From Methanobacteriota archaeon (lineage in GTDB: Archaea > Halobacteriota > Methanosarcinia > Methanosarcinales > Methanosarcinaceae): a stretch of 60,818 bases of DNA. The stretch is taken from the NCBI GenBank assembly GCA_016841625.1, contig JAENYU010000009.1:65981-126798 (forward strand), written 5' to 3'. The notes beneath the pieces are model-generated. The model was not told where the DNA came from. It ran no database searches and saw only the letters and a list, made by a program, of their open reading frames with translations. Both the position numbers and the translations under genes were made by a program. How positions within the stretch are numbered: the first letter of the stretch is position 1; each line of letters begins with the position of its first letter. This document shows, piece after piece, positions 10,859 through 57,467 of this stretch.

Positions 10859-10942
10859 ACATTGTTTTTATAAATTTATTTCAATGCATTGTCCAACTCT
10901 TTTTTAGCAAATCCTGCAAAAGCATTAGACAAAATCACCTGA

Positions 10943-12274: not shown

Positions 12275-12315
12275 TTATTCAGATCCGGCAGGCATTTTTT
12301 CGGATTTATCCGTCA

Positions 12316-13149
12316 TTAGTGAGCCTCAGAAATAAGGTGCTTTTCGGAAAAAAACAGATCTTTGTCCAGTGCAATAATGACGGCTGCAATAACCAGGAGG
12401 ACCACGGTTTGAATGCACTTTGTCGCCTGAGTCATATCCAGTGCCTCCTGCGAGATATTGACAATAAAGTGAAAGAGAATCGCCGCAGGAATACTTTTCC
12501 CATTTTTTATGCAGATCCAGCTGATGATCATTCCCAGGGGGATGATGCTGACAAAAAAGTTCACACCATACCAGATGTTTTCGTGAAAAATCTCATACTG
12601 GTAGGAGTTATTGACAAAGATCAGCGGAAAGTGCCAGAGGGACCAGAGTATGCTGAAAATAAGCGATGCCTTAAAGTAAGTGTGCCGGCTCTGCAGACTG
12701 TCAAAGGCATACCCTCTCCAGCCAAGCTCTTCAAAACCCGCGGCAAGCATAAGAAGAAACAGCACAGGGACAAAGCCCGTTGAAAAAGAGAAACCTTCGG
12801 CAAGTTGGAACTGCGAAACCGATCCCCCGAACGGAAGCGAAAGAAGGATGGATACCAGAACGGAAAACGGCGCTATTAAGAAAAATACCGGCAGCATTTT
12901 AGGCTCTATCAGCCTTAGATTGATAAGCCGGTTGCCGAAATCTTTTACTAAGTCCGAATTCTTTGACGCAAAGATCATAACAAGTGAGATCAAAAACGGT
13001 GCCATCAGTCCGGGCAGCATAAGTAACATGTACAGCCCGCCTCTACCTTCCTGAAAACTTACATATGCCCCTGCAAACCAGAGAACATAGGTTGCGATAA
13101 AGGTCGCAGCATAATAGATCCCGGGTTTGTATTTGTAGTTAGAAATCAT
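12316..13149 (-). CDS. CPBP-family intramembrane metalloprotease
   Basis: A 277-residue membrane protein with about eight helices and the three CPBP (Abi/CAAX protease) motifs in order: FEELGWRGYAFDSL (EExxxR), a WSLWHFPL motif with the second histidine, and a late LFHFIVNIS motif with the third metal-ligand histidine. The family includes CAAX prenyl endopeptidases and bacteriocin-immunity proteins; the substrate here is unknown. It is the upstream member of a probable operon with the MFS transporter. Confidence 0.82.
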   Translation of the reverse strand: MISNYKYKPGIYYAATFIATYVLWFAGAYVSFQEGRGGLYMLLMLPGLMAPFLISLVMIFASKNSDLVKDFGNRLINLRLIEPKMLPVFFLIAPFSVLVSILLSLPFGGSVSQFQLAEGFSFSTGFVPVLFLLMLAAGFEELGWRGYAFDSLQSRHTYFKASLIFSILWSLWHFPLIFVNNSYQYEIFHENIWYGVNFFVSIIPLGMIISWICIKNGKSIPAAILFHFIVNISQEALDMTQATKCIQTVVLLVIAAVIIALDKDLFFSEKHLISEAH

Positions 13150-13466
13150 TTTTTTCTCCAGGTTTTAACTGCCACGCCCCGTTTTTATTTTTTAACTTAA
13201 CCCGGCTCTGACAGCAAAAAACAATAAGATTGCTCCAGGAATGTTCTTGATTTTCCTGTCTCCGACAAAAATACAAGCAATCATGAAACCCCTGTAAATA
13301 ATTTATAATATATATACATTCCTATTTGGCACTCATATATTTTTCAGGAGCAGTAGAAGGAAAAGTCAAAGGGTGACACTATATAGGATATAAAGTTATT
13401 TGAGGGGGTTAGCTGACCCGAAAGAAGTGAAAAATTCAGTCTTGTTCCCCGCTTCTCTCCCATAAA

Positions 13467-16596: not shown

Positions 16597-17285
16597 CTTC
16601 GAAAGTTTTTGCACCTTTATAAAGAAACGCCCTCCGGGTCAAAGTATTCGGGGTCAAAATCTTCCCCCATCCATTCCACAACGTCCTCATATTCCGGATG
16701 TGAAGGGTCCTCCAGGATCTCCAGCTTGTATAAGTAACCCCATACCCCTCCGCTGTCTTCCGGAACAGCAGCCCTTTTTCCGGCAGTACAGACAGGGTAC
16801 TTCACTCCTTCCTCTCTTGGCAGGATCTTTTCAAGCCGGATTTTCACCTGCCAGTTGTCCCCGAAATCATATCTGTACAGAGCAGCCTTATTTCCCAGCG
16901 TGAAATAATCGGAGATTTTAGCTTTCTTCTCCGGCACAAGCGGCCCATCATAGAAATTTTCAAAATCGCCATCTGTAGCCCCGATCCTTTCAGGGAACCC
17001 TGTCTTCGAGTCTGGCATTTCAAATTCGTGTAGATGGTAATTATCCCAATCCATTGCAGCCTGTATAGCACGATGAAGGTCAAAGAAGGTATAATTTTCC
17101 GGCATCTGGATTCGCCGCCAGATCTGAGGGGTAATGCCCTTCATGGAAAGCTTTAGCTGGTAAACCTTCTCGAAAGTCTGTTTCATAAATTATTCACCCA
17201 GGTAAATATATTTGGATCCACCTATTTCAGGTTTGGGGTTTTTTGTCACAAAATCAACTGATAACACCCGGGAAAGAAGGCGCCT
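16597..17285. repeat. Duplicated unit, copy 1 (about 690 bp)
   Basis: Homologous to 18487-19177. The unit includes the whole pRiA4b ORF-3-like gene, a short downstream stretch (GAAGTTTTTGCA... near the left edge) and about 100 bp upstream, ending with a GGGAAAGAAGGCGC sequence shared by both copies. Confidence 0.7.
16617..17186 (-). CDS. pRiA4b ORF-3-like protein, copy 1
   Basis: A 189-residue protein of the plasmid pRiA4b ORF-3 family. The signature is present: YQLKLSMKGITPQIWRRIQM at the start, then TFFDLHRAIQAAMDW, HLHEFE, LYRYDFGDNWQVKI and CTAGKRAAVPEDSGGVWGY. The family is often found on mobile elements and near transposons; its biochemical role is unknown. The gene is a close paralogue of the one at 18508-19077, and homology extends about 100 bp upstream of both starts. 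The two copies lie in the same direction around a SEC-C gene. Confidence 0.82.
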   Translation of the reverse strand: MKQTFEKVYQLKLSMKGITPQIWRRIQMPENYTFFDLHRAIQAAMDWDNYHLHEFEMPDSKTGFPERIGATDGDFENFYDGPLVPEKKAKISDYFTLGNKAALYRYDFGDNWQVKIRLEKILPREEGVKYPVCTAGKRAAVPEDSGGVWGYLYKLEILEDPSHPEYEDVVEWMGEDFDPEYFDPEGVSL

Positions 17286-17511
17286 TAACCGATGTCATGC
17301 CAATTGATATGCCTTTTTTTGCTGAATCCTGCTAACGAATTGAGTTTGCCTTGAATTGTAGGGAATTTCTCAAGACGTTCAATCCTTGTTTTAGGAATGA
17401 TTCAAATATAGTATCAAGGGTTTTTGTTGCCAAAAATGGATTTAGGGAAATGGAGCTATAGATCAATTCCCAAACTGAAAATTTGAAGTTATATTTTTAT
17501 CATTCCTGAAT

Positions 17512-18402
17512 TTATCCCTGGAATAGTTGCTTTGTTTTTTCCATATCCTCAAGCTCAGTATGTGACTCAGCTTCTGCTCTGAGCATATTCTTTATTATTG
17601 ACTCATCTGAATGAGGGAAAATCCGACAGAAATCCTGGCAGTATTTTATCCTCTTCAGATAAAAAGAGTCATCTTCCGTCCCTGCGTTACCTAATTCAAC
17701 TTCAAAATCCTGACACCAATTAAAAATACTTTGTGTTAGACCGGAAATGAATTTATCAGCATCCGTAACAGATTTTATATGAGGGGGAACAATACTTATT
17801 ATCATGTTCCACGCTTTTTCCCACTTTTCTATTCCATCTCTGCAATTCTGTTTTCCAATGTCTTCATAACCTTCTTGAGTTAAATCGTCAATCATTTCCA
17901 TATTGCATTTTTCTGGAATAATCCGGTTCCATAATTCTATTATTGCTAACCAGATGAAATCTTCGTCCTTACCCTGTGCCTGAAAATTCTGCGTGTAATA
18001 ATGATCTTCTGCTAACTGAATTGCGGAGATATAATTTTGAGCCTGTTTTTTGAAACGTTCTATTTCGAAATCGATATGCATTGATTCCAATTTTTCAAGT
18101 ATTTCCGAAGTGCTCATCTTCCTTACTTTATTGAGATTCCAGCTTTCCAGAATGAAATCTTTGAAGCATATATCCTTATCATTAGAGAATTTTTCAATTT
18201 GTTTGCCCATTTGTTCCAATTTTTCGGGCTTATCCTGCAATTTCTGTTGAAATCTCATAATGGATAACCGACTAACAACTGGTTTTTCGGATTTTGAAGT
18301 GGTTTTATTTACAGAGGCTACTTTGCTACCCAAACAACAATGTTTATATTTTTTGCCTGAACCACATGGGCACGGCTCATTTCTACCAATTTTCTTTGAC
18401 AT
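17512..18402 (-). CDS. SEC-C motif protein
   Basis: About 296 residues. The first 27 contain the SEC-C zinc motif ([19 protein letters not shown]), known from the SecA C-terminus and from many stand-alone proteins as a zinc-binding interaction module. The rest is helical and charged, with no membrane segment and no recognised catalytic motif. The start at 18402 is preferred over 18477 because the zinc motif follows directly and GGAACTGATC precedes the ATG by three bases. It sits between two copies of the pRiA4b ORF-3-like gene, all on one strand; the trio may have moved or duplicated together. Confidence 0.7.
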
Positions 18403-18486: not shown

Positions 18487-19177
18487 GGTTCGGAAGTTTT
18501 TGCAGCTTCAGAAAGAAACGTCCTCAGGGTCAAAGTATTCGGGGTCAAAATCTTCCCCCATCCATTCCACGACGTCTTCATATTCCTCATCCTCAGGGTC
18601 CTTCAGGATCTCCAGCTTGTATAAATATCCCCCTATCCCTCCGCTGTCTTCAGGGACAGCCGCCCTTTTTCCGGCAGTACAGACAGGGTACTCCACTCCT
18701 TCTTTTCTCGGCAGGATTTTTTCAAGCCGGACTTTTACCTCCCAGTTGTCCCCGAAATCATACCTGTACAGAGCAGCCTTATTTTCCAGGGTGAAATAAT
18801 CGGAGATTTTAACTTCTTCCTCCGGCACGACAGTCCTTTCAAAGAAATCTTCAAAATCGTCGCCTTTTTCCCCTATTTTTACAGGAATCCCTATCCTCGG
18901 GTCTGGCATTTCAAATTCGTGAAGATGATAATCGTCCCAATCCATTACAGTCTGGATAGCGTTATGAAGGTCAAGAAATGTGTAATTTTCCGGCACCTGG
19001 ATTCGCCGCCAGATCTGGGGTCTAATGCCTTTTATGTAAAGCTTTAGCTGGTAAACCTTCTCGAAAGTCTGTTTCATGAATTATTCACCCGGATAAAGAT
19101 ATCTGGATTTAGCTATTTCAGGTTTTTGGGGTTTTTGTCTTAGAATTGACTGATAGTACACGGGAAAGAAGGCGCGT
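18487..19177. repeat. Duplicated unit, copy 2
   Basis: Second copy of the 690-bp unit described at 16597-17285. Its upstream edge (near 19160-19177) falls inside a broken glyoxalase-like gene. The duplication or insertion is therefore likely what truncated that gene. Confidence 0.65.
18508..19077 (-). CDS. pRiA4b ORF-3-like protein, copy 2
   Basis: 189 residues, same length as copy 1 and very similar throughout (IRPQIWRRIQVPENYTFLDL, LYRYDFGDNWEVKVRLEKIL, CTAGKRAAVPEDSGGIGGY). The main differences cluster in the middle (KIGEKGDDFEDFFERTVVPE against RIGATDGDFENFYDGPLVPE). Both copies look intact, so they may have distinct roles or be a recent duplication. Function unknown. It is upstream of the SEC-C gene by about 105 bp. 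Confidence 0.82.
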   Translation of the reverse strand: MKQTFEKVYQLKLYIKGIRPQIWRRIQVPENYTFLDLHNAIQTVMDWDDYHLHEFEMPDPRIGIPVKIGEKGDDFEDFFERTVVPEEEVKISDYFTLENKAALYRYDFGDNWEVKVRLEKILPRKEGVEYPVCTAGKRAAVPEDSGGIGGYLYKLEILKDPEDEEYEDVVEWMGEDFDPEYFDPEDVSF

Positions 19178-32958: not shown

Positions 32959-33182
32959 ACTCAAGGAAAGTAATGACTGACTCAAAAGGTCCGGGAATTA
33001 ATCATTAAGATGATACTTTGTGTTTATAGTACCTGAAAACTGAGCGAACGATGAAAAATATGAGGAATAAAGACAATGTAAAAAATGAACACTGTTAAAT
33101 TGTAGGGTCACTTATTTCATTTGTGGATGAAGCTCATACTCAATAATAAAATTTCCAAATAATTTTTCAAAGGAAGCCTGTT

Positions 33183-34646
33183 ATGAACCATAAAACCTTA
33201 GTTTGCTTTTTTCTATCGATTATAATTGTGTCTGCAGCCTGTTCCGGGTGCATTTCAGAAGGTGATAACGTGCCTGAAGAGGAAATTGAAAACATCGAAG
33301 AAATCAAAGGCCTCTGGATGGGAAGCCTGGAGCTCCCGGGCGGGCAGGAAATGAGAATTTTATTCAACATCTCTACCGGTCCAGAGGGTTCACCGATTGC
33401 CACTATGGACAGCCCTGACCAGGGAGTAAGCGACATACCCGTAGAGAAGCTTACTTACAAAAATGGGACCCTGCGCCTTGATATGACAGTTATCAAAGGG
33501 GTTTTTGAAGGAGTGCTTAAAGAGGACGGCACAGCCCTGGAAGGAGAGTGGAAACAGTCCGGGATGGTTTTTCCGCTTGTGCTTACCCGTATTGAGGAAA
33601 AACCTGAAATGCGCAGGGAGCAGGACCCCGTAAAACCCTATCCGTATGATGAAGAAGAAGTAGTTTATGAAAATAAAGAGGCAGGGGTCCAGCTGGCTGG
33701 CACGTTAACCACTCCCGGGTCGGAGGGGCCTTTCCCCGCCGTGCTGCTCATAACAGGCTCCGGCCCGCAAAACCGCAATGAAGAAATTTTAGGGCACAGG
33801 CCGTTCCTTGTGCTCTCGGATTACCTGACACGCCAGGGCATTGCCGTCTTGAGGGTCGATGACCGGGGCATGGGAGGCTCAACCGGGAACTTCTCCCAGG
33901 CCACTACCGAAGATTTCGCAGGGGACGTACTTGCAGGCGTTGAGTACCTGAAGAGCCGCGAAGAGATAGACTCGACCAAGATCGGGCTGATAGGGCATAG
34001 TGAAGGCGGTTTGATTGCCCCAATAGTAGCTGTGCAGTCTCCTGATGTCGCATTCATCGTGCTGATGGCAGGTCCGGGCCTGACAGGGGAGGAAATTATT
34101 CGGCTGCAGAGCAGGCTGATTGCTGAGGCTGAGGGAATACCCAGCGAGACCAGCGCCAAAAATGATGCTCTTCTGAAAGACATATTCTCCGTGCTTAAAG
34201 CGGAAGAGAATGACACGATTGCCGGGGAGGAAATCCGCGGGCTTATAACGGATATGCTGGAAAACCTGAGCGAAGAAGAAAAACAGTATTCCAGCTACAC
34301 CGAAGCTTCTCTGGATGCTGAAGTCCAGGCACTTTTGTCGCCGTGGATGCGCTTTTTCCTGACATACGATCCCAAACCGACATTGATGCAGGTGAAATGC
34401 CCGGTCCTTGCGATAAATGGGGAAAAAGACCTCCAGGTGCCGCCTGAAGAGAACCTCCGGGCCATCGAGGAAGCCCTCAAAGCAGGAGGCAACGAGGACT
34501 ATACCGTAAAAGAGCTGCCGGGTCTTAACCATCTGTTCCAGACCGCTCAAACCGGGTCCCCCTCCGAGTACGTAACGATTGAAGAGACCATGTCACCGGC
34601 TGCCATGGAGCTTATCGGGGACTGGATTTTGGAGCATACCCGGTAA
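33183..34646 (+). CDS. Exported alpha/beta hydrolase
   Basis: 487 residues. The first 20 form a lipoprotein-type signal (FFLSIIIVSAACSGC), so the protein is probably anchored outside the membrane. Residues about 38-140 form a beta-rich domain common in front of such hydrolases (LWMGSLELPGGQEMRILFNI). The hydrolase domain has the nucleophile elbow GLIGHSEGG, the acid in LAINGEKDLQVP and the histidine in LPGLNHLFQ, so the triad is complete. Likely an esterase or peptidase on small substrates. AAAGGAAGCC precedes ATG. Confidence 0.82.
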   Translation: MNHKTLVCFFLSIIIVSAACSGCISEGDNVPEEEIENIEEIKGLWMGSLELPGGQEMRILFNISTGPEGSPIATMDSPDQGVSDIPVEKLTYKNGTLRLDMTVIKGVFEGVLKEDGTALEGEWKQSGMVFPLVLTRIEEKPEMRREQDPVKPYPYDEEEVVYENKEAGVQLAGTLTTPGSEGPFPAVLLITGSGPQNRNEEILGHRPFLVLSDYLTRQGIAVLRVDDRGMGGSTGNFSQATTEDFAGDVLAGVEYLKSREEIDSTKIGLIGHSEGGLIAPIVAVQSPDVAFIVLMAGPGLTGEEIIRLQSRLIAEAEGIPSETSAKNDALLKDIFSVLKAEENDTIAGEEIRGLITDMLENLSEEEKQYSSYTEASLDAEVQALLSPWMRFFLTYDPKPTLMQVKCPVLAINGEKDLQVPPEENLRAIEEALKAGGNEDYTVKELPGLNHLFQTAQTGSPSEYVTIEETMSPAAMELIGDWILEHTR

Positions 34647-34692
34647 AAGTGAACTTCGGAAAAGGAGTGTTAGTGTTCAGGAGGAAATGGCT

Positions 34693-34775
34693 GCACTGTA
34701 TTGTCATGCACTATTGCCATGCACTGTATTGCCATGCACTGTATTGCCATGCACTGTATTGCCATGCAGTGTCAT
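34693..34775. repeat. 15-bp tandem repeat GCACTGTATTGCCAT
   Basis: Five units follow each other (one 13-bp, one with T for C, three perfect), plus a partial sixth. The array lies between the hydrolase and the metallophosphoesterase genes, 85 bp before the latter's start. Confidence 0.85.
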
Positions 34776-34859
34776 TTTTCCTTTAATATTTTCCTCCTCT
34801 ATCCTTATTTCTAGCAATAGAAGGTAAATCTTTAAGGTTGAAATCAATGGGGAATTGAA

Positions 34860-35513
34860 ATGAAAATATATTGCGCATCCGATTTTCATATTGGTTACGA
34901 AAATGCAAATTATCCAAAAATGAAAGAGTTTTTTGAGATAGTGAAAGAAAATGCGGATGAGCTTATCCTCTGCGGAGACGTTCTGGATTTGTGGCGCTGC
35001 CCCATTGAAACAATTCAAAATGAAGAACCGATGAAAAGTACTTATGAAGCTTTACTCGCGATGGCAGAGGAAGTACCTACCACGATCATCTGGGGAAACC
35101 ACGATTATAAGCTCTGGAAAAAAGTGAGCATACCTGTCAGGGTTACTGACAGCTTTGTTTCGAAAAATATTTACTACTGTCACGGTTGGCGGTTTGATTT
35201 ACAGCAGAGATTGGGATACTGGTTGTACGGCTGGCTGGTAAACAAATTCCCCTATCTATATCAAAAATTTTTCAAAACTCCTTTTGAACTGAAGATTAAG
35301 GGCCAGGAATATGAATTACACAATCGGATTATACATGAAAAAGCAAGAGAGTTCATCAAAAAAGAAGGACTTGAGTACCTGATAATGGGACATACGCACG
35401 CCCCGTCAGGCGGAGATGGTAAACTCTTTGATTGCGGGGATATGATTGACAACCTTACTTACGTCATAATTGAGAATGGTAAGCCCAGGCTTGAAAAAAT
35501 GTCACCTGATTGA
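34860..35513 (+). CDS. Metallophosphoesterase
   Basis: 217 residues with the metal-binding motifs of calcineurin-like phosphoesterases in order: ASDFHIG (D-x-H), LILCGDVLDLW (GD), IIWGNHDYKL (GNHD), YYCHGWRFD (H) and IMGHTHAPSGG (GHTH). The overall pattern resembles the LpxH-like group, which acts on nucleotide-sugar or lipid pyrophosphates, but an archaeon lacks lipid A, so the substrate is open. GGGGAATTGA precedes ATG. Confidence 0.82.
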   Translation: MKIYCASDFHIGYENANYPKMKEFFEIVKENADELILCGDVLDLWRCPIETIQNEEPMKSTYEALLAMAEEVPTTIIWGNHDYKLWKKVSIPVRVTDSFVSKNIYYCHGWRFDLQQRLGYWLYGWLVNKFPYLYQKFFKTPFELKIKGQEYELHNRIIHEKAREFIKKEGLEYLIMGHTHAPSGGDGKLFDCGDMIDNLTYVIIENGKPRLEKMSPD

Positions 35514-35622
35514 TCGATAAATAGATGCTGAAAAGAGGGATAGCTTGAGAAAAGAACCGGGACCGAATATCTTCAACAGTACTGGAGCTCTTGCCGCTGA
35601 AAAAAAGGGAGCAGGGGATTTC

Positions 35623-36303
35623 ATGGAAGCCATAAAGGTGCTGGCGGCTTTGGTGCTTGCATTTGCGATGGCAACCGTTATCCTGTTTATACTGGCCCCA
35701 GAGGTCGGGCTTCCGATGATTACAGTTTTCATTACTGTCATCCCTGCGATGATAATGGCAATCGGTGTGCTGGCACTCATTTTTCTGGTAATATATCTTT
35801 ATGAATCCAGGCTAAAGCTGAGGTATGGGGGGCAGCTTGAGGAACTTTTCGCCAGGCTCCAGCAACCTTCCTCGCCCCTCAGGGCTGCAATTATCACGGG
35901 CATGAACCTGATATTTTTCGCAGCGATAAATTTATTCTGCACGAAAGTACCTGTGGTTGTAAACCTCTCGGGAAATAAGCCCCAGGAGATTGTCCCGTTG
36001 TTTTCCCCGGAATTTGCGGGAATCCTTCCGTTCATAAACCTGCTTATCATTTCGACAATTCTTGCGAACCTGCTCTATCCCGTAATTAAGAGCAAATGGG
36101 TAACCTTTGCCATAGAAACAGTTCTCGGCATTGCTTCAGCTGTCCTTATATATGCCGTTATAACGTTTTTCCCTTTCAATCCAGCCTTAAATTCGGGTGT
36201 ACTGCTCGCCATAAAATTAGGCCTTGCATTTGTCCTGGTGATGACGCTGGTCGGAGCGGCAAAGAATCTCCTGAAAACAATAACCCTGTTGCTGCAGAAG
36301 TGA
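35623..36303 (+). CDS. Membrane protein of unknown function
   Basis: About 226 residues from ATG 35623 with six hydrophobic helices (VLAALVLAFAMATVILFIL, PMITVFITVIPAMIMAIGVL and later ones) and a charged loop (YESRLKLRYGGQLEELFARL). No family recognised. A longer frame from 35545 adds 26 polar residues before the first helix and is less likely. Its last 13 codons and stop lie inside a 78-bp sequence that is repeated exactly 8 kb downstream. Confidence 0.6.
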   Translation: MEAIKVLAALVLAFAMATVILFILAPEVGLPMITVFITVIPAMIMAIGVLALIFLVIYLYESRLKLRYGGQLEELFARLQQPSSPLRAAIITGMNLIFFAAINLFCTKVPVVVNLSGNKPQEIVPLFSPEFAGILPFINLLIISTILANLLYPVIKSKWVTFAIETVLGIASAVLIYAVITFFPFNPALNSGVLLAIKLGLAFVLVMTLVGAAKNLLKTITLLLQK

Positions 36304-36339
36304 AATCAGGAAGTATAAAAAGAGAGAAAGAAGAGAGAA
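36262..36339. repeat. 78-bp direct repeat, left copy
   Basis: Identical over all 78 bases to 44337-44414. It covers the 3' end of the membrane protein gene and 36 bp beyond its stop. The two copies bracket an 8.1-kb island. Confidence 0.9.
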
Positions 36340-36349
36340 TAGTGAAAAT

Positions 36350-36373
36350 CAAATTCAGTCTCCGTTTTCCAGA
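36350..36373. repeat. 24-bp fragment of the downstream hydrolase gene at the island's left edge
   Basis: These 24 bases are identical to 44706-44729, which lie inside the serine-hydrolase gene (codons for WKTETEF). They form the last residues (LENGD) of the truncated transposase frame. The left border is therefore a patchwork of sequence from the right side. Confidence 0.8.
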
Positions 36374-36843
36374 TTTTTGATTGTTTTAGAACTTTTATCG
36401 TCAAAAAGCTCATCGTCCAATGGTCTTTGAATTTTTGTGTCAAGTAAGGTTAAACGATATTTTTGACAACGTGCTTCCTTTGGATGCTGTTCATCATAGT
36501 GTACAATGTACACATTACACAAATCTGGAACTTCCTCTTGTTCCATACTCTTGTTGAATTCTCTTAGAATTGTGCTTCTTGACATTGGAAAGATGAAATC
36601 CATAATGGCAGAAATTCCTTCATAAGACACATTATGATACCTGAGCAGTCGAAAGAAATCGTTAAATGAATCAAAAAGAAAAGATTTGAGATCCTCCCAA
36701 AAAGCACGAATTTCTTCCTGGGTATTGTAACAGTTTGAACACTTGTATCTACCGATTTTTACTTCTCCAAGCTCTTTTTTGGTGTACATGTTGTAACCAT
36801 TATGAACCATGTGACTGTTACATATAGAACATAATGGAGACAT
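36357..36843 (-). pseudogene. Transposase gene, 3'-truncated
   Basis: 162 codons remain. The N-terminus has a CSICNSH / CSNC zinc-finger pair. Later, NVYIVHYDEQHPKEARCQKY and RLTLLDTKIQ contain the first aspartate of a DDE-type catalytic core, as in transposases common in methanosarcinas. The frame breaks off after FDDKSSKTIKN and finishes in five residues that come from another gene (the 24-bp fragment), so the catalytic C-terminal half is missing. I cannot name the IS family with certainty. Confidence 0.65.
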
Positions 36844-36954
36844 TTTTCTATGTAAAATTCCTCTTGCAGTATACTCATAATTGTCATCAAAGTTATACCA
36901 AAAATGTCTAAAAGAAGAGGTATCTCAGAAAAGTTATTAAGGTTTATCTCCGAA

Positions 36955-37015
36955 GGCGGGAAGACTCCTTTCTCGGAGGCCGCAGGCCGACAGGTGGGGG
37001 ATGAAAGCCGTCCAC
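36955..37015 (+). mobile_element. IS605-type right-end-like sequence (copy a)
   Basis: GGCGGGAAGACTCCTTTCTC, then a GC-rich stem (GGCCGCAGGCC), CAGGTGGGGG and CGTCCAC. The order matches the other right-end copies in the window (GAAG...CCCTTCCTC, stem, CAGG.GGGGTAGTTCAC), though this copy is more diverged. Confidence 0.45.
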
Positions 37016-37046
37016 TTCCCGACACTACAATAAAATAACTCTCTAT

Positions 37047-37371
37047 AAATTATATAAGAATTTCCTTATATAATTTCAAAACAAATAAGGAATGTCATGA
37101 AAATGAGGAACGTGTACCGGATCTATCCGGATGATGAACAATAAACGCTTATCGAAAAGCATATCGGTAGCAGTCGGTTCATTTTCAATCGCTTCCTCCA
37201 CATCAAAAAGGTTTTCTACGACAAATTCAGGATCAACATTTCCCTGAGTCAACTTGACAAGTACCTTCCCATGTTCAAGGAAATCTATCCCTGGCTCAAA
37301 GAGGTCAATTCACAGTCTCTTCAGGAAGTCCCTTCCTCGCTTTCATCAGAAAGCAGGTGGGGATAGTTCAC
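37047..37371 (+). mobile_element. tnpB-deleted IS200/IS605 derivative (PATE-like)
   Basis: The element opens with a perfect 12-bp hairpin, AAATTATATAAG / CTTATATAATTT (37047-37076), the left-end structure typical of the family. A 5' fragment of tnpB follows, then a right-end sequence (37322-37371) that ends GGGGATAGTTCAC. The tnpB fragment joins the right end directly, so this is an internal-deletion derivative of about 325 bp. Confidence 0.6.
37097..37320 (+). pseudogene. tnpB N-terminal remnant
   Basis: From ATG 37097: MKMRNVYRIYPDDEQ, an in-frame TAA at 37142, then TLIEKHIGSSRFIFNRFLHI and YPWLKEVNSQSLQ. This is the RIYP-x-x-EQ...LIxxxxGxxRFxxN...YPWLKEVNSQSLQ pattern of TnpB N-termini. 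The RuvC core is absent. TnpB proteins are RNA-guided nucleases of IS605 elements. Confidence 0.7.
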
Positions 37372-37506
37372 TACTGTTATGTTTTTGCCATAACAACATT
37401 GCATAAAATCATAATTATATATTTTATATAGTGGTATTACACTTACTAAATCACTTGATTTTGGAACTGAGTCGAAATCCAATATGTTCAATAGTGGTGA
37501 TGGGAT

Positions 37507-40500
37507 TTGCAAATAAGGGCACTTCGTAAAGTACTTATTATTGTTGTATTATTGGCTGCTCAGTTTTATCCAGCTGTCGCAACAAGCAGTGATGATGTGC
37601 TGCAGGATGATATTCCTTCCATTTCAAAGGATACTGTTGCAGCTTTATCTATGGTTTCCCAGATTAAGGCGCACACTCCATCTGATAGTGGATTGGATGT
37701 CCCTCGACTTATAGATGTTTCCACAAATAAAACCGATACTGATAATGATGGATTGCCTGATTCCGTGGAAACAATCCTTGGAACCGACTTTAACAATACC
37801 GATTCTGATTTTGACAGGCTTGATGACTATAATGAATCCGTGGTCTACCTCTCAGATCCGCTTGAGCCGGATTCTAATTATGATGGTTTCCCTGATTATT
37901 TTGAAGTGACTGATGCCCCATCCGATGATGTTGATTCCGATGGGTTTTCCAACATCTGGGATTTTGATAATGATGGTGACGGTATAGAAGACAATATTGA
38001 TTCATCACCGTTTGCCTATTCCATAATGTATGATACTTTCAATTTCAATCTCAAAACAAATGGAAATCCTATTTACATAGACTTCCAGCTTCTTCCCCAG
38101 AATCCTGATAATGTGAGACTTGCCTTACAGGAATGGGACTGGCCCTATGATAACAAGAGTACGATGCAGGATCTTGATAATTCCAGTGATGACCTGCAAA
38201 TTATTCCAATGCTTGAACTTACCATGAGTTCTGTTCCTGAACAATCGGAAGTAGATGATTATGGTATTGGCATTTCTTTAGACAGGGCGTATGTTCCTCT
38301 ATTCCAGGTCCGAGGTCTTGGAGGTGAAGCTGCTCTGGGTGGAAAAATGTTCTATCCTGCATCTGACCCGCTTGATGTCCAGATCAATGCAAGTCTTGTA
38401 TGGTTGGTGAAAGCGAAAACCGATTATCTGGACAATACAACCATCAAATCCGAGGATACTACCCTTGTAACATATCAAGAAAACTTCACCCTGACAGGTT
38501 TCAGTGTTGAGGAAAGCTATGGTAGTGACATTGGTTTGTTCTATAGCGATGATATAAACCAGACCATGGCGGCTAACTTCCTGATGGCATATTCATTTTT
38601 GCGAGATAACCAATCCACTGTTCAGGATATGCCTCTTGAACTTGAAAATCACAATGTAAGTTTGCTATCAAATGTTGATAGTTTTTCGCATCGTGATCAG
38701 ACATTATTGAACGTTACCACTAAAATGACACCTGGTGCTCTGGATGCACTTCCTGCAGATAAGATTCTTCCGATTATTGCAGCATCTGAAAATTCCTTCA
38801 CAAAAACGGAGTTATCTGAACTTAATTCCATATCTCACGTTGTAGGTAATGATCTTTCAATAGATATGAGAAATGAGCCGGTCATAACGTTAAAATTGAT
38901 GAAGACAAACTGGTTCAATACAACCGAAAAAACCCCTGTTAATCTCGAATCTGTTTTAACTGAGACAATGAATTGGGGACAGGTCATGAATGTGGATGAC
39001 GATACTCTCTCATCCATAATGGCCCTGGCAATTGTATGGAACGTGGGTGAGTCAACGGTTACAAAGGTTGGAGATCGTTTTACTATCTTCAATCATGAAG
39101 AAGTAATAAAGGTTGGAGATGAAATTACAAAATGGGTTGGTACTGGCTTCTCTTCGGTTTCCATACCTCTTGATGCAATTTCTATCGCATCTGGAATATT
39201 TGAAAGCTCCCTTGAAGTACTTGATGCTGTGCTCAAGGCTGCTATAACTGCTGGAAAAACTCTCAAAACCGCAATCCCCCTTGTCGAGAAAACGGCCAAG
39301 GTAATTGTAAACATTACCAAAGTTGCAAGCGGAATGAGCAAGGTTCTTAATGTACTTGGTGCTATCACACTGTCGACGGGATTTGTCCTTGAAATTGGTT
39401 TTGCTATCTGGGGTTTATTTAAAATATCAATGAGCGAGGGCTGGTCATCAATCGGTATTTTCCAGGGAGCTGTTTATGCTGCCATCATGACCGCATACGC
39501 GGCCACTCTTTTTGCCATCGGGGTAATTCTTCTGGTATGTGGAGCTATTCCGGTGTATGGCTGGGCAATTGCACTGGCGGGAGGTATTATTTTGGGACTG
39601 ATCGGATTGACCGATTTTATCCTTGGTTTCTTCGGCATTGGATTTTCAGATTTTGTTACATGGATTGTGGGCACATTCCATCAAACCTACCCGCATACTG
39701 AATATTCCCTAGCTGTCCTGAATACGTCACTAGATATGGATGACCATAAAAGTAATGGATTTGATGCGGGTGATCGAATTATTTTTAAAAGTTATATCAA
39801 CAGTACGATTACAAATACCTCCTACGCCCACAGCAGCTGGCAAAATGTCACGGAAAGCTACATTGTTCCCCATTATAAGGTCAGGCGATGGATGCCAGTA
39901 GATACACCATATACTTACTGGAACTCAAATTATGGTGATTATACAAACAACGTATCATATTCTGAATCTCGTCCCGATTCCAAGAACACAACCTATGAGG
40001 TCGGCGTATGGATAGAGCCTGCAGAAGGTGCTGCCAATTTCCCGCTTCCAATTGTGTTTGAAGCGGATTATAAAATAATATATACGGACCGCAGGATTCA
40101 ATGGGAGATCTGGAAAGGTTACAAAGAAACCATCATGACTGAGACCGGTACTGTCACAAGTGAAGTTGACACACTTTACTTCGACATTCTTCCCGGAAAT
40201 GTCAATGATTTTACAAGCTGGTACCAGATTTCACCACTTGATCGCGATGCTGACGGACTTACCAATAATATTGATCCATACCCATGGAGCTGGGATGCTG
40301 ACGGAGACGGGTTAAGCGATAAATTTGAAATTAATACTATTGGATCAGATCCTTCCAGTTCTGATAAGGATGGGGACGGACTAAACGATAGGATGGAGAT
40401 CATCTACGGCACGAACCTGACAAACCCCGATACCGACAGGGATAATCTGTCCGATTACAAGGAAATCAATGGCTGGGATATCAGTTTCAATTACAGTAAC

Positions 40501-43500
40501 CAGACATTTAACATGACTGTCCACTCCAATCCTTTAGTGCAGGATAGCGATGATGACGGTGTGGACGACCAGATGGAATACTGGAGTTACCTGAACCCCA
40601 TGTCAAAAGACACGGACGGGAATGGTATTCCCGATGAGCCGAATCCGCAACATCTGACATATGTTAATTTTGAAACAAAATGGGGAACTGAAGGTGTAGA
40701 AGATGGGCAATTTACTTATCCAGAAGTAGTTGCAGTAGATGATGATGGTTATGTTTATGTTGCAGATTCAGGAAATCAACGCATTCAGAAATTCGATTCC
40801 AGTGGCAATTTCATTACCAAATGGGGAACTGATGGTGAAGGGGATGGAGAGTTCGAATCCATAACGGACCTTGCAGTTGATTCTAATGGTAATATTTATA
40901 CTCTTGAAATGAACCGTATCCAGAAATTCAACTCAGACGGCAATTTCATAACATCATGGAATACAACTTCCCGCCGCACTTTTGCTATTGATGCTAATGA
41001 TTACATTTATGGTACCCCTATTAATGATTACTTTTATGATCATTATCCCCTTCCTAGCAACATCGTCATCCAAAAATTCAATTCAAGTGGAATATTTGTT
41101 GAAAATATAACATTTGTAAACGGGAATGAGGTGTTTGAGGGTCCTTATAAAATGACTATCTCCGATGATGGCAGTTTCTATCTTACCAACGGGATAGATT
41201 TCCCCAATCAGGGTATATTCAAGTTTGACCCAAACGGAACTTTCATAAAACGATGGGGAAGCGAAGGATATCTGAATAAGAGCTTTTCTGCACCTGAAGG
41301 ACTTGCAGTTGATGCTAAGGGATATGTTTACATTGCCGACACGGGTAATAATCACATTCAAAAATTCAGTTCCGACGGATTTTTCGTTACCAGATGGGGT
41401 CAAGATGGTGAAAATAACAGTGAATTTAATGACCCCCACGGAATTGCAATTGATGCAGATGAATATGTCTATGTTGCAGATTCAGGAAACAACCGCATCC
41501 AGAAATTTGCCCAGGTTACAGACATACCACCACGTAATGTATCCAGTACTACAGATACCGATGGAGATGGTTTGACCGATAATAATGAGTCCATTGGGTG
41601 GGATGTGACTTTTACGAATGTGACAGGTGTGTTTGCAATTCATGTAAACAGTGAACCTCTGACCGAAGATACTGATTTTGATAGGTTGACAGATCTTGAA
41701 GAGTATAATCATTCATCCAATCCCCGGGACATAGATTCAGACGATGACGGACTCAGTGATTTTATCGAGAGTATTATTGGAACGAATATCACCAACTATG
41801 ATACCGATGGAGACGGACTGGATGACAACACCGAGATAATTTTTGGCAGTAAGCCTAAAAAAGTAGATAGTGACAACGACGGCCTATCAGATTATGAGGA
41901 GTTCTATTTCAATTCTGATCCGAAAAAGAAAGATACCGATGGAGATGGATTGTCAGATAAGGAAGAGAAGGACTTCAAATCAAACCCGCGAAATCCGGAT
42001 TCGGACGGCGACCTGATGTTTGACAAAGCAGAGAAGAACAGGACTGCCGATCCATGGAATCCGGACTCAGACGGAGATGGTTTGCCTGATGGGTATGAGT
42101 TGTTGTATAATACCAGCGCATTGAACAACGATACTGATAAAGACGGCGTGTTTGACGGAAAAGAAGTTGATAATCATATGAATCCGTTAAACAATGATAC
42201 TGATGGCGATGGGCTGAATGATCTTTTTGAACTCAATAATGGTACAAACCCATTGAATGCTGATACAGACGGAAATGGCTTAAATGATTCAGAAGATCCA
42301 TACACCTTTGCAGCTAATGTAGAGAGGATCTGGGTTAGCTATGACTCCGATGATGATACCCTCCGGTTGGTTGAAGACCTTGGTAAATATACCAATATAA
42401 CCATTTTCAAGCCTGAGGATATTGGAAATTATTCCGATGAGCAAAATATCCTGTTTGTTGGAAGACCGGGAATGGATAATACAACTGCTGGAAACCAGAT
42501 CCAAAATATTATTGGTTCTGTTGCGCCTAATGCTCTTTCAAGAATGCAGGAGTCTGACCATGACAGGTTCTATGTTGAATATAATGTCTGGCAAGAGAAC
42601 CAAACTGTTGTTATGTTATCTCATCCATATCCATTGGATCATTACAGGGTGCTGGAATTATTCAAGACTCTTTCTGAAAATACGGAATATCCAAACGTTG
42701 TAAGTGAGTTCAAAGCAGATGCCATCGATGAGTTGGGATCTTTTGTAATGGTTGAACTTAAAGAACCTGTAAAACCATCCATAGAACTGCAAGTCTATAA
42801 TGAGGAAAACCTGCCGCATGATGCCAAATACAGCTTCTCCGGAAATGGATTGGGTGTCAAATATCTTGATATAAATGTCAGTGAAAACGTTATGAATGCA
42901 AGTTCTAATAATATTGAAAGAGCACTTATTGTTATCTACTATACGGCTCGTGATCTTGACAGGACTGGTGATCTGGATGCGAATGATCCGGGGGATATTA
43001 ATGAGAAAACTCTGGTCATGAATTGGTTCAACGATTCCAGTGGCATGTGGGAAAAGCTCACAACTAATATGGATTGGGTAAATGATGTTGGAATCGATAC
43101 CACAAATGATGTTATTAATGGCAAGGAATATGAGGGATATCTCTGGGCGAATGTGTCCCATTTTAGCATGTATGGGCTTTCCGGAAATGAAATAACCCAA
43201 CAAGCAGAAAGAGGCGGCGATGATGATCATCCGCTCGATTCGGATCTTGATGGTCTGTATGATTTCATGGAACGCAGGATAGGTACCGATCCTTATGATC
43301 CTGACACGGATGACGACGGTATCATTGATTCGGAGGATGATGACCCGTTGCTTCCCGAAGGTATCATTGATTCGGAGGATGATGATCCATTGGTTCTATA
43401 CAGCTCTCCGAGTGAAGTAGAATCGGGAATGCCGAATGAGTCTGGAGATGCAATGGAAAAATATCCTGAACCCAAAAAATTCTCATCAACGTTATTTTGG

Positions 43501-43563
43501 ATATCAGGCATTGCCCTTATTGCATTATTAGCTTATCTGCTGGTATTTCGGAGAAAGGAATAA
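37507..43563 (+). CDS. Giant surface protein: calcium-type repeats, hydrophobic core, NHL repeats, C-terminal anchor
   Basis: 2018 residues from TTG 37507, with GGTGAT just upstream. Residues 1-26 are a signal peptide. Thrombospondin-3-like DxDxDGL repeats occur at about 75-165, 910-1045, 1350-1600 and near 1905-1960; they bind Ca2+ in known families. Residues about 530-725 contain long hydrophobic glycine/alanine helices, unusual for a surface protein. Residues about 1055-1340 are NHL repeats (VYVADSGNxRIQKF), likely a beta-propeller. The C-terminus is a membrane helix plus RRKE. I infer a large adhesin or envelope protein. Its AT-rich codon use differs from neighbouring genes, and it lies in the island between 78-bp repeats, so it was probably acquired. 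The next gene is probably a partner. Confidence 0.8.
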   Translation: MQIRALRKVLIIVVLLAAQFYPAVATSSDDVLQDDIPSISKDTVAALSMVSQIKAHTPSDSGLDVPRLIDVSTNKTDTDNDGLPDSVETILGTDFNNTDSDFDRLDDYNESVVYLSDPLEPDSNYDGFPDYFEVTDAPSDDVDSDGFSNIWDFDNDGDGIEDNIDSSPFAYSIMYDTFNFNLKTNGNPIYIDFQLLPQNPDNVRLALQEWDWPYDNKSTMQDLDNSSDDLQIIPMLELTMSSVPEQSEVDDYGIGISLDRAYVPLFQVRGLGGEAALGGKMFYPASDPLDVQINASLVWLVKAKTDYLDNTTIKSEDTTLVTYQENFTLTGFSVEESYGSDIGLFYSDDINQTMAANFLMAYSFLRDNQSTVQDMPLELENHNVSLLSNVDSFSHRDQTLLNVTTKMTPGALDALPADKILPIIAASENSFTKTELSELNSISHVVGNDLSIDMRNEPVITLKLMKTNWFNTTEKTPVNLESVLTETMNWGQVMNVDDDTLSSIMALAIVWNVGESTVTKVGDRFTIFNHEEVIKVGDEITKWVGTGFSSVSIPLDAISIASGIFESSLEVLDAVLKAAITAGKTLKTAIPLVEKTAKVIVNITKVASGMSKVLNVLGAITLSTGFVLEIGFAIWGLFKISMSEGWSSIGIFQGAVYAAIMTAYAATLFAIGVILLVCGAIPVYGWAIALAGGIILGLIGLTDFILGFFGIGFSDFVTWIVGTFHQTYPHTEYSLAVLNTSLDMDDHKSNGFDAGDRIIFKSYINSTITNTSYAHSSWQNVTESYIVPHYKVRRWMPVDTPYTYWNSNYGDYTNNVSYSESRPDSKNTTYEVGVWIEPAEGAANFPLPIVFEADYKIIYTDRRIQWEIWKGYKETIMTETGTVTSEVDTLYFDILPGNVNDFTSWYQISPLDRDADGLTNNIDPYPWSWDADGDGLSDKFEINTIGSDPSSSDKDGDGLNDRMEIIYGTNLTNPDTDRDNLSDYKEINGWDISFNYSNQTFNMTVHSNPLVQDSDDDGVDDQMEYWSYLNPMSKDTDGNGIPDEPNPQHLTYVNFETKWGTEGVEDGQFTYPEVVAVDDDGYVYVADSGNQRIQKFDSSGNFITKWGTDGEGDGEFESITDLAVDSNGNIYTLEMNRIQKFNSDGNFITSWNTTSRRTFAIDANDYIYGTPINDYFYDHYPLPSNIVIQKFNSSGIFVENITFVNGNEVFEGPYKMTISDDGSFYLTNGIDFPNQGIFKFDPNGTFIKRWGSEGYLNKSFSAPEGLAVDAKGYVYIADTGNNHIQKFSSDGFFVTRWGQDGENNSEFNDPHGIAIDADEYVYVADSGNNRIQKFAQVTDIPPRNVSSTTDTDGDGLTDNNESIGWDVTFTNVTGVFAIHVNSEPLTEDTDFDRLTDLEEYNHSSNPRDIDSDDDGLSDFIESIIGTNITNYDTDGDGLDDNTEIIFGSKPKKVDSDNDGLSDYEEFYFNSDPKKKDTDGDGLSDKEEKDFKSNPRNPDSDGDLMFDKAEKNRTADPWNPDSDGDGLPDGYELLYNTSALNNDTDKDGVFDGKEVDNHMNPLNNDTDGDGLNDLFELNNGTNPLNADTDGNGLNDSEDPYTFAANVERIWVSYDSDDDTLRLVEDLGKYTNITIFKPEDIGNYSDEQNILFVGRPGMDNTTAGNQIQNIIGSVAPNALSRMQESDHDRFYVEYNVWQENQTVVMLSHPYPLDHYRVLELFKTLSENTEYPNVVSEFKADAIDELGSFVMVELKEPVKPSIELQVYNEENLPHDAKYSFSGNGLGVKYLDINVSENVMNASSNNIERALIVIYYTARDLDRTGDLDANDPGDINEKTLVMNWFNDSSGMWEKLTTNMDWVNDVGIDTTNDVINGKEYEGYLWANVSHFSMYGLSGNEITQQAERGGDDDHPLDSDLDGLYDFMERRIGTDPYDPDTDDDGIIDSEDDDPLLPEGIIDSEDDDPLVLYSSPSEVESGMPNESGDAMEKYPEPKKFSSTLFWISGIALIALLAYLLVFRRKE

Positions 43564-43609
43564 GGTATAATTGGGAATAATTTGAGAATCTGCATATAAG
43601 GTGGTTTAA

Positions 43610-44329
43610 TTGCTATCACCAGAAAAGAAAGAGACAAAGAAGAAATTATTTGCTGCATTTGCCATCATTTGTGTTCTAATCATTTTTGCTGTCTATTATG
43701 TTGAGTATCGGGAAATAAATGATGCTTACTCACTTGCAGGCAGAGTTCTTTATGTTTCTAATGATGTTAGTTCCTACCAGTTTGATATCCACAGCAACAT
43801 TTCAATGTTAGGGGAAACTCTTCCGATTATTATAGGAAATGGTTCAGTAGATTATAAAAATGAAAGAATAGCGACAAAATTTGAATCTGTTGAACAATCG
43901 ATAGATCTGATTGTTGTTGATGATTATGCTTATTTTAGAAGCAATAATGGTTCATGGGAAAAAAAGGATCTAAATGAAGAAATGTGGGATAGTTATGATC
44001 AATTAGCCCAACAAAACCTTCTTTTGGACGATACAACAAATCTGAGTATGCAAAAAATAAATTCTCATATAGTACTGACTGCCATTCCAGATAGGAGTGT
44101 ATTAATTCAGGAGGCAAAAAAAGTCGGTCTGGATTTGCAGGGTGATGAACAATTAAATGATTATTATATAACGTACCTGATCGATAAAGACACTTATCGC
44201 ATCATTTCGATTGAAATGCATATCGAATTCCTGATGAATATCCAGGGGTTAATGTCGCCAGTTATCATAAACAACCAGATTGATATTTATAACTACAATA
44301 AGGGACTTGATATTGAAGCACCAATCTAA
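43610..44329 (+). CDS. Membrane-anchored extracellular protein, unknown function
   Basis: 239 residues from TTG 43610, with AAGGTGG eight bases before it, the same start type as the giant gene. One N-terminal membrane helix (LFAAFAIICVLIIFAVYY) is followed by a beta-rich exterior domain (YQFDIHSNISMLGETLPIII, SVDYKNERIATKFE) whose strand pattern resembles LolA-type lipoprotein-carrier folds; this is a weak resemblance. It lies 46 bp after the giant surface protein gene and shares its AT-rich composition, so the two are likely one transcription unit and a functional pair. Confidence 0.6.
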   Translation: MLSPEKKETKKKLFAAFAIICVLIIFAVYYVEYREINDAYSLAGRVLYVSNDVSSYQFDIHSNISMLGETLPIIIGNGSVDYKNERIATKFESVEQSIDLIVVDDYAYFRSNNGSWEKKDLNEEMWDSYDQLAQQNLLLDDTTNLSMQKINSHIVLTAIPDRSVLIQEAKKVGLDLQGDEQLNDYYITYLIDKDTYRIISIEMHIEFLMNIQGLMSPVIINNQIDIYNYNKGLDIEAPI

Positions 44330-44336
44330 ATTCCTG

Positions 44337-44414
44337 AAGAATCTCCTGAAAACAATAACCCTGTTGCTGCAGAAGTGAAATCAGGAAGTATAAAAAGAGA
44401 GAAAGAAGAGAGAA
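44337..44414. repeat. 78-bp direct repeat, right copy
   Basis: Exact copy of 36262-36339, here outside its parent gene and placed just after the end of the gene at 43610-44329. This is the strongest mark of the island's right border. Confidence 0.9.
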
Positions 44415-44451: not shown

Positions 44452-44499
44452 CAGGCTATTGCCCAGGCTATTGCCCAGGCTATTGCCCAAGCAGATGCC
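44452..44499. repeat. 12-bp tandem repeat CAGGCTATTGCC
   Basis: Three perfect units (44452-44487) and one diverged unit (CAAGCAGATGCC), just right of the island border and 60 bp before the hydrolase gene end. The frame across it is not supported as a gene. Confidence 0.8.
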
Positions 44500-44559: not shown

Positions 44560-46140
44560 TTAGCTGCTGCCGCTCTCTAGCCTTCCATCAAAGGTTGCAC
44601 CTCCAAGCCCTGTCAGCTCCTGAATTTGAAGTGTAACCTCATCGGCTTCAAAGGTCATGCTAACCTGGTAGTTGTTGATATTGGAGACCTCATTATAATA
44701 AAAAACAAATTCAGTCTCCGTTTTCCAGAACCCCTTAAGTGCCAGAGGTCCGAACTCCCCGCCGGGAGATAGGCGGTAAACATTATCCAGCCCTACCGGC
44801 AGCACCTGCTGGTCCTCTGCCAGGGAGAGGTTGAGAAGGGCTTCCTCCTGTCCCTCAAAACTCAGGGAAATGCTTCCTATGCCATAGGGGTTGGGCTCAA
44901 CTACATACGTTTTACCTGAAATTTCCTCTGCCATTTCCGGTAGGGGAGGAACGGGTTCGGGATCAGGGAGGTTTGAGGCAGCCGTTATTTTCTCCTGAAG
45001 CCGTCCATAGGCTTCCGGGTTTTCAGGCAGGGCCTGATCCGACTGCAGAGATTCAAGAAGGAAAGGAGCAAGATCCTCTGGTTCAAAGCCCCCACCTGTA
45101 ATCACGACTACAATGTTTTTTTCGGGTAAGACAGAAATCCGCTGGCCGCCACGTCCCCTTGCTTCATAAAGCCCGGTGATATCGCCTGAAACCCACCACT
45201 GGTACCCATATCCTTCGCCTTCGTCCAGAGAGACATGTTTTTGCGTCGATTCGTTCACCCACCCTGCCGGCACGATTTGTTCCCCGTCCCAGGCACCTTC
45301 ATTCAGGTAGAGGTACCCCAGTTTTGCCATATCCGGAGGAGCCAAACGCAGGTCACCCCAGCCGTGGTTGTTCCCCTGAGGGTCGGAAGGCCAGCTGACG
45401 TTCCGGATGCCGAGAGGTCCAAAAAGACTTTCATTGGCATAGTCCAGTTCGCTCATGCCGGTTGTCTCCCGGATGATTCCTGAGAGGAGATGTGCGTTAT
45501 TGCTGCAGTAGACGAAACGGGTGCCCGGCTCGTCGGCCATGGGCAGGTCAAGCGTAAACTGGACCCAGTCCGGGCTTTCCCGCATCTGGGTAAGCGTGAT
45601 TTCAGAGGGATCGTTGACACACTCAAAACCCGACCTCATGGTAAGAAGGTCTTCCAGGGTCATTGCCTCTTTCCTGGAATCAAGGTTTTCAACGCTCCGT
45701 TCCGGGAAGAATTCCAGGACTGGCTGCTCGACACCTGCGATGTGCCCCTCGGAAATAGCAATGCCGGTCAGGGTTGACGTGAAACTTTTGGTAACGGAAG
45801 CAGTATCGTGTATGGAACCCTCAGCAAAGGGATAAAAGTAAGCATCTGTCACGACGTAGCCATTTCTTATGAGCAGCAAGCTGTGTATGTTAACGTCCTC
45901 TTCCCGGATGTAATCCAGCGTCTCAGCCAGTTTTTCCGAGTCTATCCCCTGCTGCTCCGGAGTTGATGTCTGCCAGCCCTCAGTGGGCCAGTATATGTTG
46001 GATTCTTCTTCAGACTCTGCACCTGGCTCTGTACCTGTATCTGTACCTGACTCGGGCGTCTCAACGCAACCGGCGGCTGCGAACAGGACCACCAAAAACA
46101 CCAGTAATCTGATAAATTTCGAATTATTTATGTTACCCAT
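44560..46140 (-). CDS. Beta-lactamase-family serine hydrolase, lipoprotein
   Basis: About 526 residues from ATG 46140 (MGNINNSKFIRLL). The signal ends at a lipobox-like LFAAAGC, and GAGGGTGG precedes ATG; a start at 46209 would bury the signal. The class-C beta-lactamase/esterase motifs are present: SVTK in ASVTKSFTSTLTG (catalytic Ser and Lys), YCSNNAHLL (Tyr-x-Asn) and a GRGGQRI element in place of the KTG motif. The C-terminal 130 residues are a beta domain. Likely an exported esterase or peptidase acting on cell-surface material. Its 3' part supplied the 24-bp piece found at 36350. Confidence 0.8.
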   Translation of the reverse strand: MGNINNSKFIRLLVFLVVLFAAAGCVETPESGTDTGTEPGAESEEESNIYWPTEGWQTSTPEQQGIDSEKLAETLDYIREEDVNIHSLLLIRNGYVVTDAYFYPFAEGSIHDTASVTKSFTSTLTGIAISEGHIAGVEQPVLEFFPERSVENLDSRKEAMTLEDLLTMRSGFECVNDPSEITLTQMRESPDWVQFTLDLPMADEPGTRFVYCSNNAHLLSGIIRETTGMSELDYANESLFGPLGIRNVSWPSDPQGNNHGWGDLRLAPPDMAKLGYLYLNEGAWDGEQIVPAGWVNESTQKHVSLDEGEGYGYQWWVSGDITGLYEARGRGGQRISVLPEKNIVVVITGGGFEPEDLAPFLLESLQSDQALPENPEAYGRLQEKITAASNLPDPEPVPPLPEMAEEISGKTYVVEPNPYGIGSISLSFEGQEEALLNLSLAEDQQVLPVGLDNVYRLSPGGEFGPLALKGFWKTETEFVFYYNEVSNINNYQVSMTFEADEVTLQIQELTGLGGATFDGRLESGSS

Positions 46141-46367
46141 AACTTCCACCCTCTCGTAATGAACCTCAAAGCATGATGCCTGATATTCTTTGAATTCAGC
46201 ATCCAGCAAACAGGATTCCCAAAAAAAAATAGCGGCAATATACTTTGAATTTCTGGTAATATATTTCTGAAATATATATTGTGGATTTTATCCATAAAAA
46301 CCAAACCTTTACCCGGGGAAAAGTGAGGCAGTTTATTTAATTTCAGGACGATTAAAGGTTGAGCAAG

Positions 46368-55963: not shown

Positions 55964-57454
<1,491 letters not shown>

Positions 57455-57467
57455 AGAAAGAAGTTAG

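What the first reader, a model, noticed from the sequence alone, without database searches (positions are those of the whole stretch)
36262..44414. 8.1-kb island between exact 78-bp direct repeats
Bases 36262-36339 and 44337-44414 are identical. The left copy is the natural 3' end of a membrane protein gene, so the right copy is the transplanted one. Between them lie transposase debris, a mini-IS605, a 2018-residue surface protein and a partner gene with AT-rich codons. The target site duplication is far too long for ordinary transposition, which suggests a duplication or recombination event that brought in the surface genes.
Basis: partly seen in the sequence, partly recalled or inferred. Interest (0 to 1): 0.72.

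Follow-up and report, generated by a model that had tools for sequence, protein, structure and literature searches.

The report
Foreign surface-gene pair between long repeats
A methanogenic archaeon related to Methanosarcina carries a foreign-looking pair of genes for a giant cell-surface protein and its partner, inserted between two neighbouring genes so that 78 bases were duplicated exactly on either side; the pair looks like an acquisition from a related genus, put in place by an untidy DNA-repair-like event and not by a known mobile element.

Summary
The 78-bp exact direct repeat is real. Between the copies lie a truncated ISL3-like transposase gene containing an internally deleted IS605/TnpB element, a 2018-aa surface protein gene (S2') and a 239-aa partner (P'). 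Methanosarcina sp. KYL-1 has the flanking genes without the island and no S-family gene. In 186 genomes of the order, P'-type partners (52-60% identity) occur only in two other genera of the family. The partners of this genus are about 30% identical. Trees of both halves of S2' reject vertical orthology with the genus's own S2 (AU p 5e-4 and 3e-6). The pair is therefore most likely an acquired xenolog. Meanwhile the genus's native S1-P1-S2-P2 site, 26 kb away in this window, is empty. The left junction also carries a 24-bp exact copy of the interior of the right-flank hydrolase gene, followed directly by the broken end of the IS. No integrase, no second IS and no Ku gene was found. A templated break-repair or template-switching insertion explains the 78-bp duplication and the filler in one event; this mechanism is inferred. 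One correction: the right copy is probably the native start of the downstream flank, so both copies look native. Ordinary in kind, though unusually legible.

The parts
35545..36303 (+). Membrane-protein gene M (left flank); its last 42 nt form the start of the 78-bp repeat
   Evidence: ORF; 86% nt match to KYL-1 L053 over 33017-36332; degenerate homolog in G033
36262..36339 (+). 78-bp direct repeat, left copy
36350..36373 (+). 24-bp exact copy of hydrolase-gene interior (35 bp at 91% from 36339), filler-like, at the left junction
36373..37473 (-). ISL3-like IS, right end intact, about 940 bp of the left side missing; truncated transposase ORF 36355-36843 whose C-terminal codons come from the hydrolase fragment
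   Evidence: Two full 1624-bp copies in G001, 99.9% identical; copy B has the 8-bp duplication TTCAGCAC; weak NCBIfam ISL3 hit
36943..37375 (+). Internally deleted IS605/TnpB element nested in the IS (about 430 bp; near-full-length copies about 1.4 kb elsewhere in the genome)
   Evidence: HTH_OrfB_IS605 hit; genome copies at 91-94%
37507..43563 (+). S2': 2018-aa surface protein (signal-like N-terminus, TSP3 and NHL repeats, C-terminal hydrophobic anchor)
43610..44329 (+). P': 239-aa membrane-anchored partner, type found in genera g5/g6
44337..44414 (+). 78-bp direct repeat, right copy; the 11-bp tract continues past it
44560..46209 (-). Beta-lactamase-fold serine hydrolase (right flank), source of the 24-bp filler
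   Evidence: PF00144; orthologs in G001, G003 and KYL-1

Best explanation
A surface-protein/partner pair related to those of another genus of the same family was acquired and now sits between the membrane gene and the serine-hydrolase gene. Shown: foreign affinity of both genes; absence of the island at this site in KYL-1; exact 78-bp duplication; 24-bp fragment of the neighbouring hydrolase gene plus a broken IS at the left junction. Inferred: the DNA was joined in one illegitimate, copy-based event (template switching, or repair of a break by templated end joining). Synthesis leaves the left flank at 36339, briefly copies the hydrolase gene about 280 bp beyond the right copy, moves to DNA holding IS-S2'-P', and re-enters 78 bp upstream of where it left, so that 78 bp is duplicated. 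Inferred role: S2' and P' are an alternative surface protein and membrane partner that take the place of the native S2-P2 pair lost from this genome.
For: 78-bp exact repeat and 24-bp filler. Site without island in KYL-1, which has no S-family gene. P' is 52-60% identical to g5/g6 proteins and about 30% to same-genus ones, none closer in 186 genomes of the order. P tree 100/100, S tree 98/97; both halves of S2' reject grouping with the genus's S2, p 5e-4 and 3e-6. GC3 37/30 against 46-47/44 for native S1, S3/P1, P3. IS truncation point coincides with the filler end. No Ku in the genus, so classical NHEJ is unlikely. Alternative end joining has been reported in archaea only for Haloferax volcanii and Sulfolobus islandicus, enzymes unknown (PMC8708640). 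A comparable junction, with a 145-bp fragment of a right-flank gene, lies left of the S1 cluster in G001 and G003.
Against: The exact donor was not found: the nearest P is 60% and the nearest S about 61-64%. KYL-1 has about 0.7 kb of AT-rich DNA plus a secreted gene between the flanks, so it is not a seam-perfect empty site. Duplication by homologous integration of a circle followed by a 280-bp deletion gives the same end state. The last 11 bp before the filler match the hydrolase gene only in part. No reads were available to rule out assembly error at the repeat.
Confidence: 0.6

Rival explanations
1. Campbell-type integration: a circular DNA carrying IS-S2'-P' and a captured 78-bp-to-hydrolase segment recombined with the chromosome, duplicating about 390 bp; the left copy then lost 280 bp.
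For: Explains why both the 78 bp and the hydrolase fragment appear in the left junction in the right order.
Against: Needs three steps (capture, integration, deletion); no replication gene, relaxase or integrase is among the island ORFs.
Confidence: 0.2
2. Remnant of a site-specific integrative element, with the 78 bp as attL and attR at the 3' end of a gene.
For: A direct repeat restoring a gene 3' end is the usual att architecture.
Against: No integrase in the island; a fragment of the host's own hydrolase gene sits just inside the left repeat; the broken IS begins right there; no family member is flanked this way in the other genomes examined.
Confidence: 0.08
3. S2'-P' is an ancient second type, vertically inherited and lost in the other species of the genus; the 78-bp repeat comes from a local rearrangement.
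For: Two S-P types exist in the family; the donor is not closely matched.
Against: Type-P' partners are confined to g5/g6 within the family; KYL-1 lacks the island; composition is atypical.
Confidence: 0.12
4. Assembly artefact at the repeat in a draft genome.
For: Draft of 63 contigs; repeats cause misjoins; several contigs end in IS605 copies.
Against: A misjoin would not create a second 78-bp copy, an 11-bp tract continuing on one side and a 24-bp hydrolase fragment.
Confidence: 0.05

Closest known systems
TSP3/NHL-repeat surface protein plus small membrane partner pairs (S-P) of this archaeal family
   Same: Gene order, domain make-up and sequence family
   Different: The partner is of the g5/g6 type, found in no other genome of this genus; the location is new
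Genomic islands and xenologous gene replacement in archaea
   Same: Foreign affinity, atypical composition, insertion at a variable locus
   Different: No integrase; 78-bp duplication with a filler fragment
Template-switching / templated end-joining insertions (polymerase theta-like or MMBIR signatures)
   Same: Short templated filler copied from nearby DNA, then an ectopic segment, then re-entry upstream giving a short duplication
   Different: Known mainly from eukaryotes (own knowledge); the enzymes in this archaeon are unknown and the event was not observed
ISL3-family insertion sequences
   Same: Terminal repeats, 8-bp duplication in G001 copy B, transposase
   Different: The window copy has lost one end and cannot by itself account for a 78-bp duplication

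Membership tests
S-P surface protein pair family | About 2000-aa protein with TSP3 and NHL repeats followed by a partner of about 240 aa | tested here: met
S-P surface protein pair family | Surface location and partnership of the two proteins | not testable with these tools
   Signal-like N-terminus and C-terminal hydrophobic segment read from the sequence only
Site-specific integrative element | Integrase gene within the island | tested here: not met
   Only S2', P', a truncated transposase and a TnpB remnant are found
Site-specific integrative element | Direct repeats at both ends of the island | tested here: met
   78 bp exact
Composite transposon (ISL3) | Two flanking IS copies | tested here: not met
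   One truncated copy only
Composite transposon (ISL3) | 8-bp target duplication at the island ends | tested here: not met
   The duplication is 78 bp; the ISL3-like copy B in G001 shows 8 bp
Classical NHEJ product | Ku present in the host | tested here: not met
   PF02735 absent in four genus genomes; the control rang in Bacillus subtilis
Template-switch / templated end-joining insertion | Short filler copied from nearby DNA at a junction | tested here: met
   24 bp exact from 44706-44729
Template-switch / templated end-joining insertion | Microhomology at each junction | tested here: inconclusive
   Only 0-2 bp visible in the junction alignments

The most novel reading that the evidence does not exclude
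S-P cassettes in this family move repeatedly by one unrecognised copy-based route that leaves a short fragment of the downstream neighbour gene at the upstream junction. Two cases at different loci share this topology: the island here, and the S1 cluster in G001 and G003, with a 145-bp fragment.
Probability: 0.12. Interest if true: 0.6.

Novelty: new member of a known kind. Interest (0 to 1): 0.36.

Why it matters
It is a legible case of a surface-protein pair being exchanged between archaeal genera. The genus's own S2-P2 pair is gone, and a foreign pair stands 26 kb from the vacated native site. The junctions are intact enough to suggest how DNA is inserted without an integrase in a genus that lacks Ku, where end-joining routes are poorly known. 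If the second, similar junction in relatives reflects the same process, surface-gene turnover in methanogens would have a testable mechanism.

Tried and rejected
Transposition by ISL3 or IS605: duplication length wrong, only one broken IS. Integrative element: no integrase, host gene fragment inside the left end. Seam-perfect empty site in KYL-1: not found, extra gene present. In-genome second copy of the repeat or of S2'-P': none. Fold of P': the no-alignment AlphaFold model was too poor to search (pLDDT 40). P' by Pfam, NCBIfam and PDB profile: only weak DUF6612 and DUF3472-protein hits, not used. Hairpin terminator in the right flank: folding no better than shuffles (z -0.05), so not claimed. 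Similar flanking direct repeats around S-P pairs of g5/g6: none. Literature: the searches tried returned no paper describing this locus or gene pair; most subscription papers are not held.

Full report
Observation. The 78-bp repeat 36262-36339 / 44337-44414 is exact, found nowhere else in the genome, and is the longest exact repeat in the window. The left copy contains the last 42 nt of ORF 35545-36303 (M). Inside the repeat there is an 11-bp tract AGAGAGAAAGA; its third unit continues in register only past the right copy, towards the hydrolase gene. I infer that the left copy is M's own 3' end and the right copy is the native start of the downstream flank, i.e. the duplication was made at the insertion and neither copy was carried in.

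Left junction. After the left copy come 10-11 bp of partly matching sequence and then 36350-36373, identical to 44706-44729 inside the hydrolase gene on the other side of the island (35 bp at 91% in all). At 36373 an ISL3-like element begins, already broken: two 99.9% identical 1624-bp copies in relative G001 show that the window copy keeps its right end (37473) but lacks about 940 bp on the left. G001 copy B has the 8-bp duplication TTCAGCAC. The truncated transposase ORF 36355-36843 takes its last codons from the hydrolase fragment. A TnpB/IS605 remnant of about 430 bp sits within the IS; near-full-length copies of about 1.4 kb are elsewhere in the genome. The intact IS end lies 33 bp upstream of the TTG start of S2', inside the upstream region conserved in relatives.

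Cargo. S2' (2018 aa) has TSP3 and NHL repeats. P' (239 aa) follows after 46 bp. The same S-P order is found in relatives and in genus g5. In the 186 genomes of the order examined, P' is matched at 52-60% only by genera g5 and g6 (next best 37%), and at about 30% by this genus's own partners. The P tree separates the two types at 100/100 and the S tree puts S2' with g5 proteins at 98/97. Splitting S2' in halves, each half rejects grouping with the genus's S2 (AU p 0.0005 and 0.000003), so a simple chimera with native S2 is not needed; in the second half the sister of S2' is unresolved. GC3 is 37.5 and 30 for S2' and P', against 46-47 and 44 for the native S1, S3 and P1, P3; the S2 of G001 also has low GC3 (39), so composition alone is weak. 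The donor itself is not in the set.

Site in relatives. KYL-1 (L053) keeps the alpha/beta hydrolase gene, the phosphoesterase gene, M, about 0.7 kb of AT-rich DNA, a small secreted-protein gene and the hydrolase, without the island, and has no S-family gene. G001 and G003 keep the secreted gene and the hydrolase but lack M; G001 has an unrelated module of about 10 kb there. The locus is therefore variable. The secreted gene was not detected in the window's genome (no positive control), so the island may have replaced it or it was lost separately. G033, of another genus, has a degenerate M followed by a repeat-rich beta-propeller-like surface ORF.

Native pair lost. In G001 and G002 the native S1-P1-S2-P2 cluster lies where the window reads straight from 10923 to 10949, and G003 has S1 there up to the contig end. 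In the window's genome S1-P1 and S3-P3 are together on contig C31 and no native S2 is found. The foreign pair has in effect taken the place of the native S2-P2, 26 kb away.

Mechanism. Ordinary transposition cannot give 78 bp; no integrase or second IS is present; Ku was not found in the genus. A single copy-based event explains everything: leave at 36339, copy 24-35 bp of the hydrolase gene, copy or join IS-S2'-P', re-enter 78 bp upstream. Integration of a circle plus a 280-bp deletion is the main rival. The 78-bp identity (0 differences) against about 11% difference of the same stretch from KYL-1 suggests the event is younger than that split, or the copies were homogenised. Alternative end joining in archaea has been reported for two species only (PMC8708640).

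A second comparable junction. Left of S1 in G001 and G003 there is a 145-bp fragment (88% to G001's own gene) from inside a gene on the right flank of the S cluster, same orientation. Two cases are a lead and no more: g5/g6 loci show nothing similar.

Assessment. The finding is real and its core reading (an insertion that brought in surface genes) holds. It is a new member of a known kind: a xenologous surface-gene pair inserted by illegitimate recombination. Steps shown: repeat, filler, broken IS, foreign affinity, island-free relative. Steps inferred: single-event template switching, surface role, functional replacement of S2-P2.

Noticed in passing
window 10923-10949: Junction where the native S1-P1-S2-P2 cluster of about 14.6 kb found in G001 and G002 is missing in this genome.
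   Followed up: partly
G001 C1:2258912-2259056 (L035 8912-9056); G003 C52:5930-6075 (L040): 145-bp fragment of the gene 12316-13149 (window) sits at the left junction of the S1 cluster, direct orientation, 86-92% identical.
   Followed up: partly
G000 contig C31 (L043) 3012, 10000-10193, 17255-17532: S1-P1 and S3-P3 stand in tandem beside a CRISPR-like array; the DNA after both partners is identical for 194 bp and ends inside a CRISPR-like repeat; P1 and P3 proteins are identical.
   Followed up: partly
G001 C1:2292492-2302859 (L037): Module of about 10 kb with 7 or more ORFs (one of 1204 aa) occupies the position of the phosphoesterase and membrane genes at the same locus; function not examined.
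   Followed up: no
L044 (G033) 11385-13403: 673-aa repeat-rich ORF (ETNITEP repeats, YVTN-like propeller, PKD-like end) after a degenerate copy of the membrane gene.
   Followed up: no
window 34712-34771, 44452-44499, 57401-57455: Short tandem arrays: 15-bp, 12-bp and AAAT units.
   Followed up: no
window 16617-17186 and 18508-19077: Two 189-aa ORFs that share long exact stretches (44, 40 and 31 bp), a local duplication with a similar arrangement in G002.
   Followed up: no
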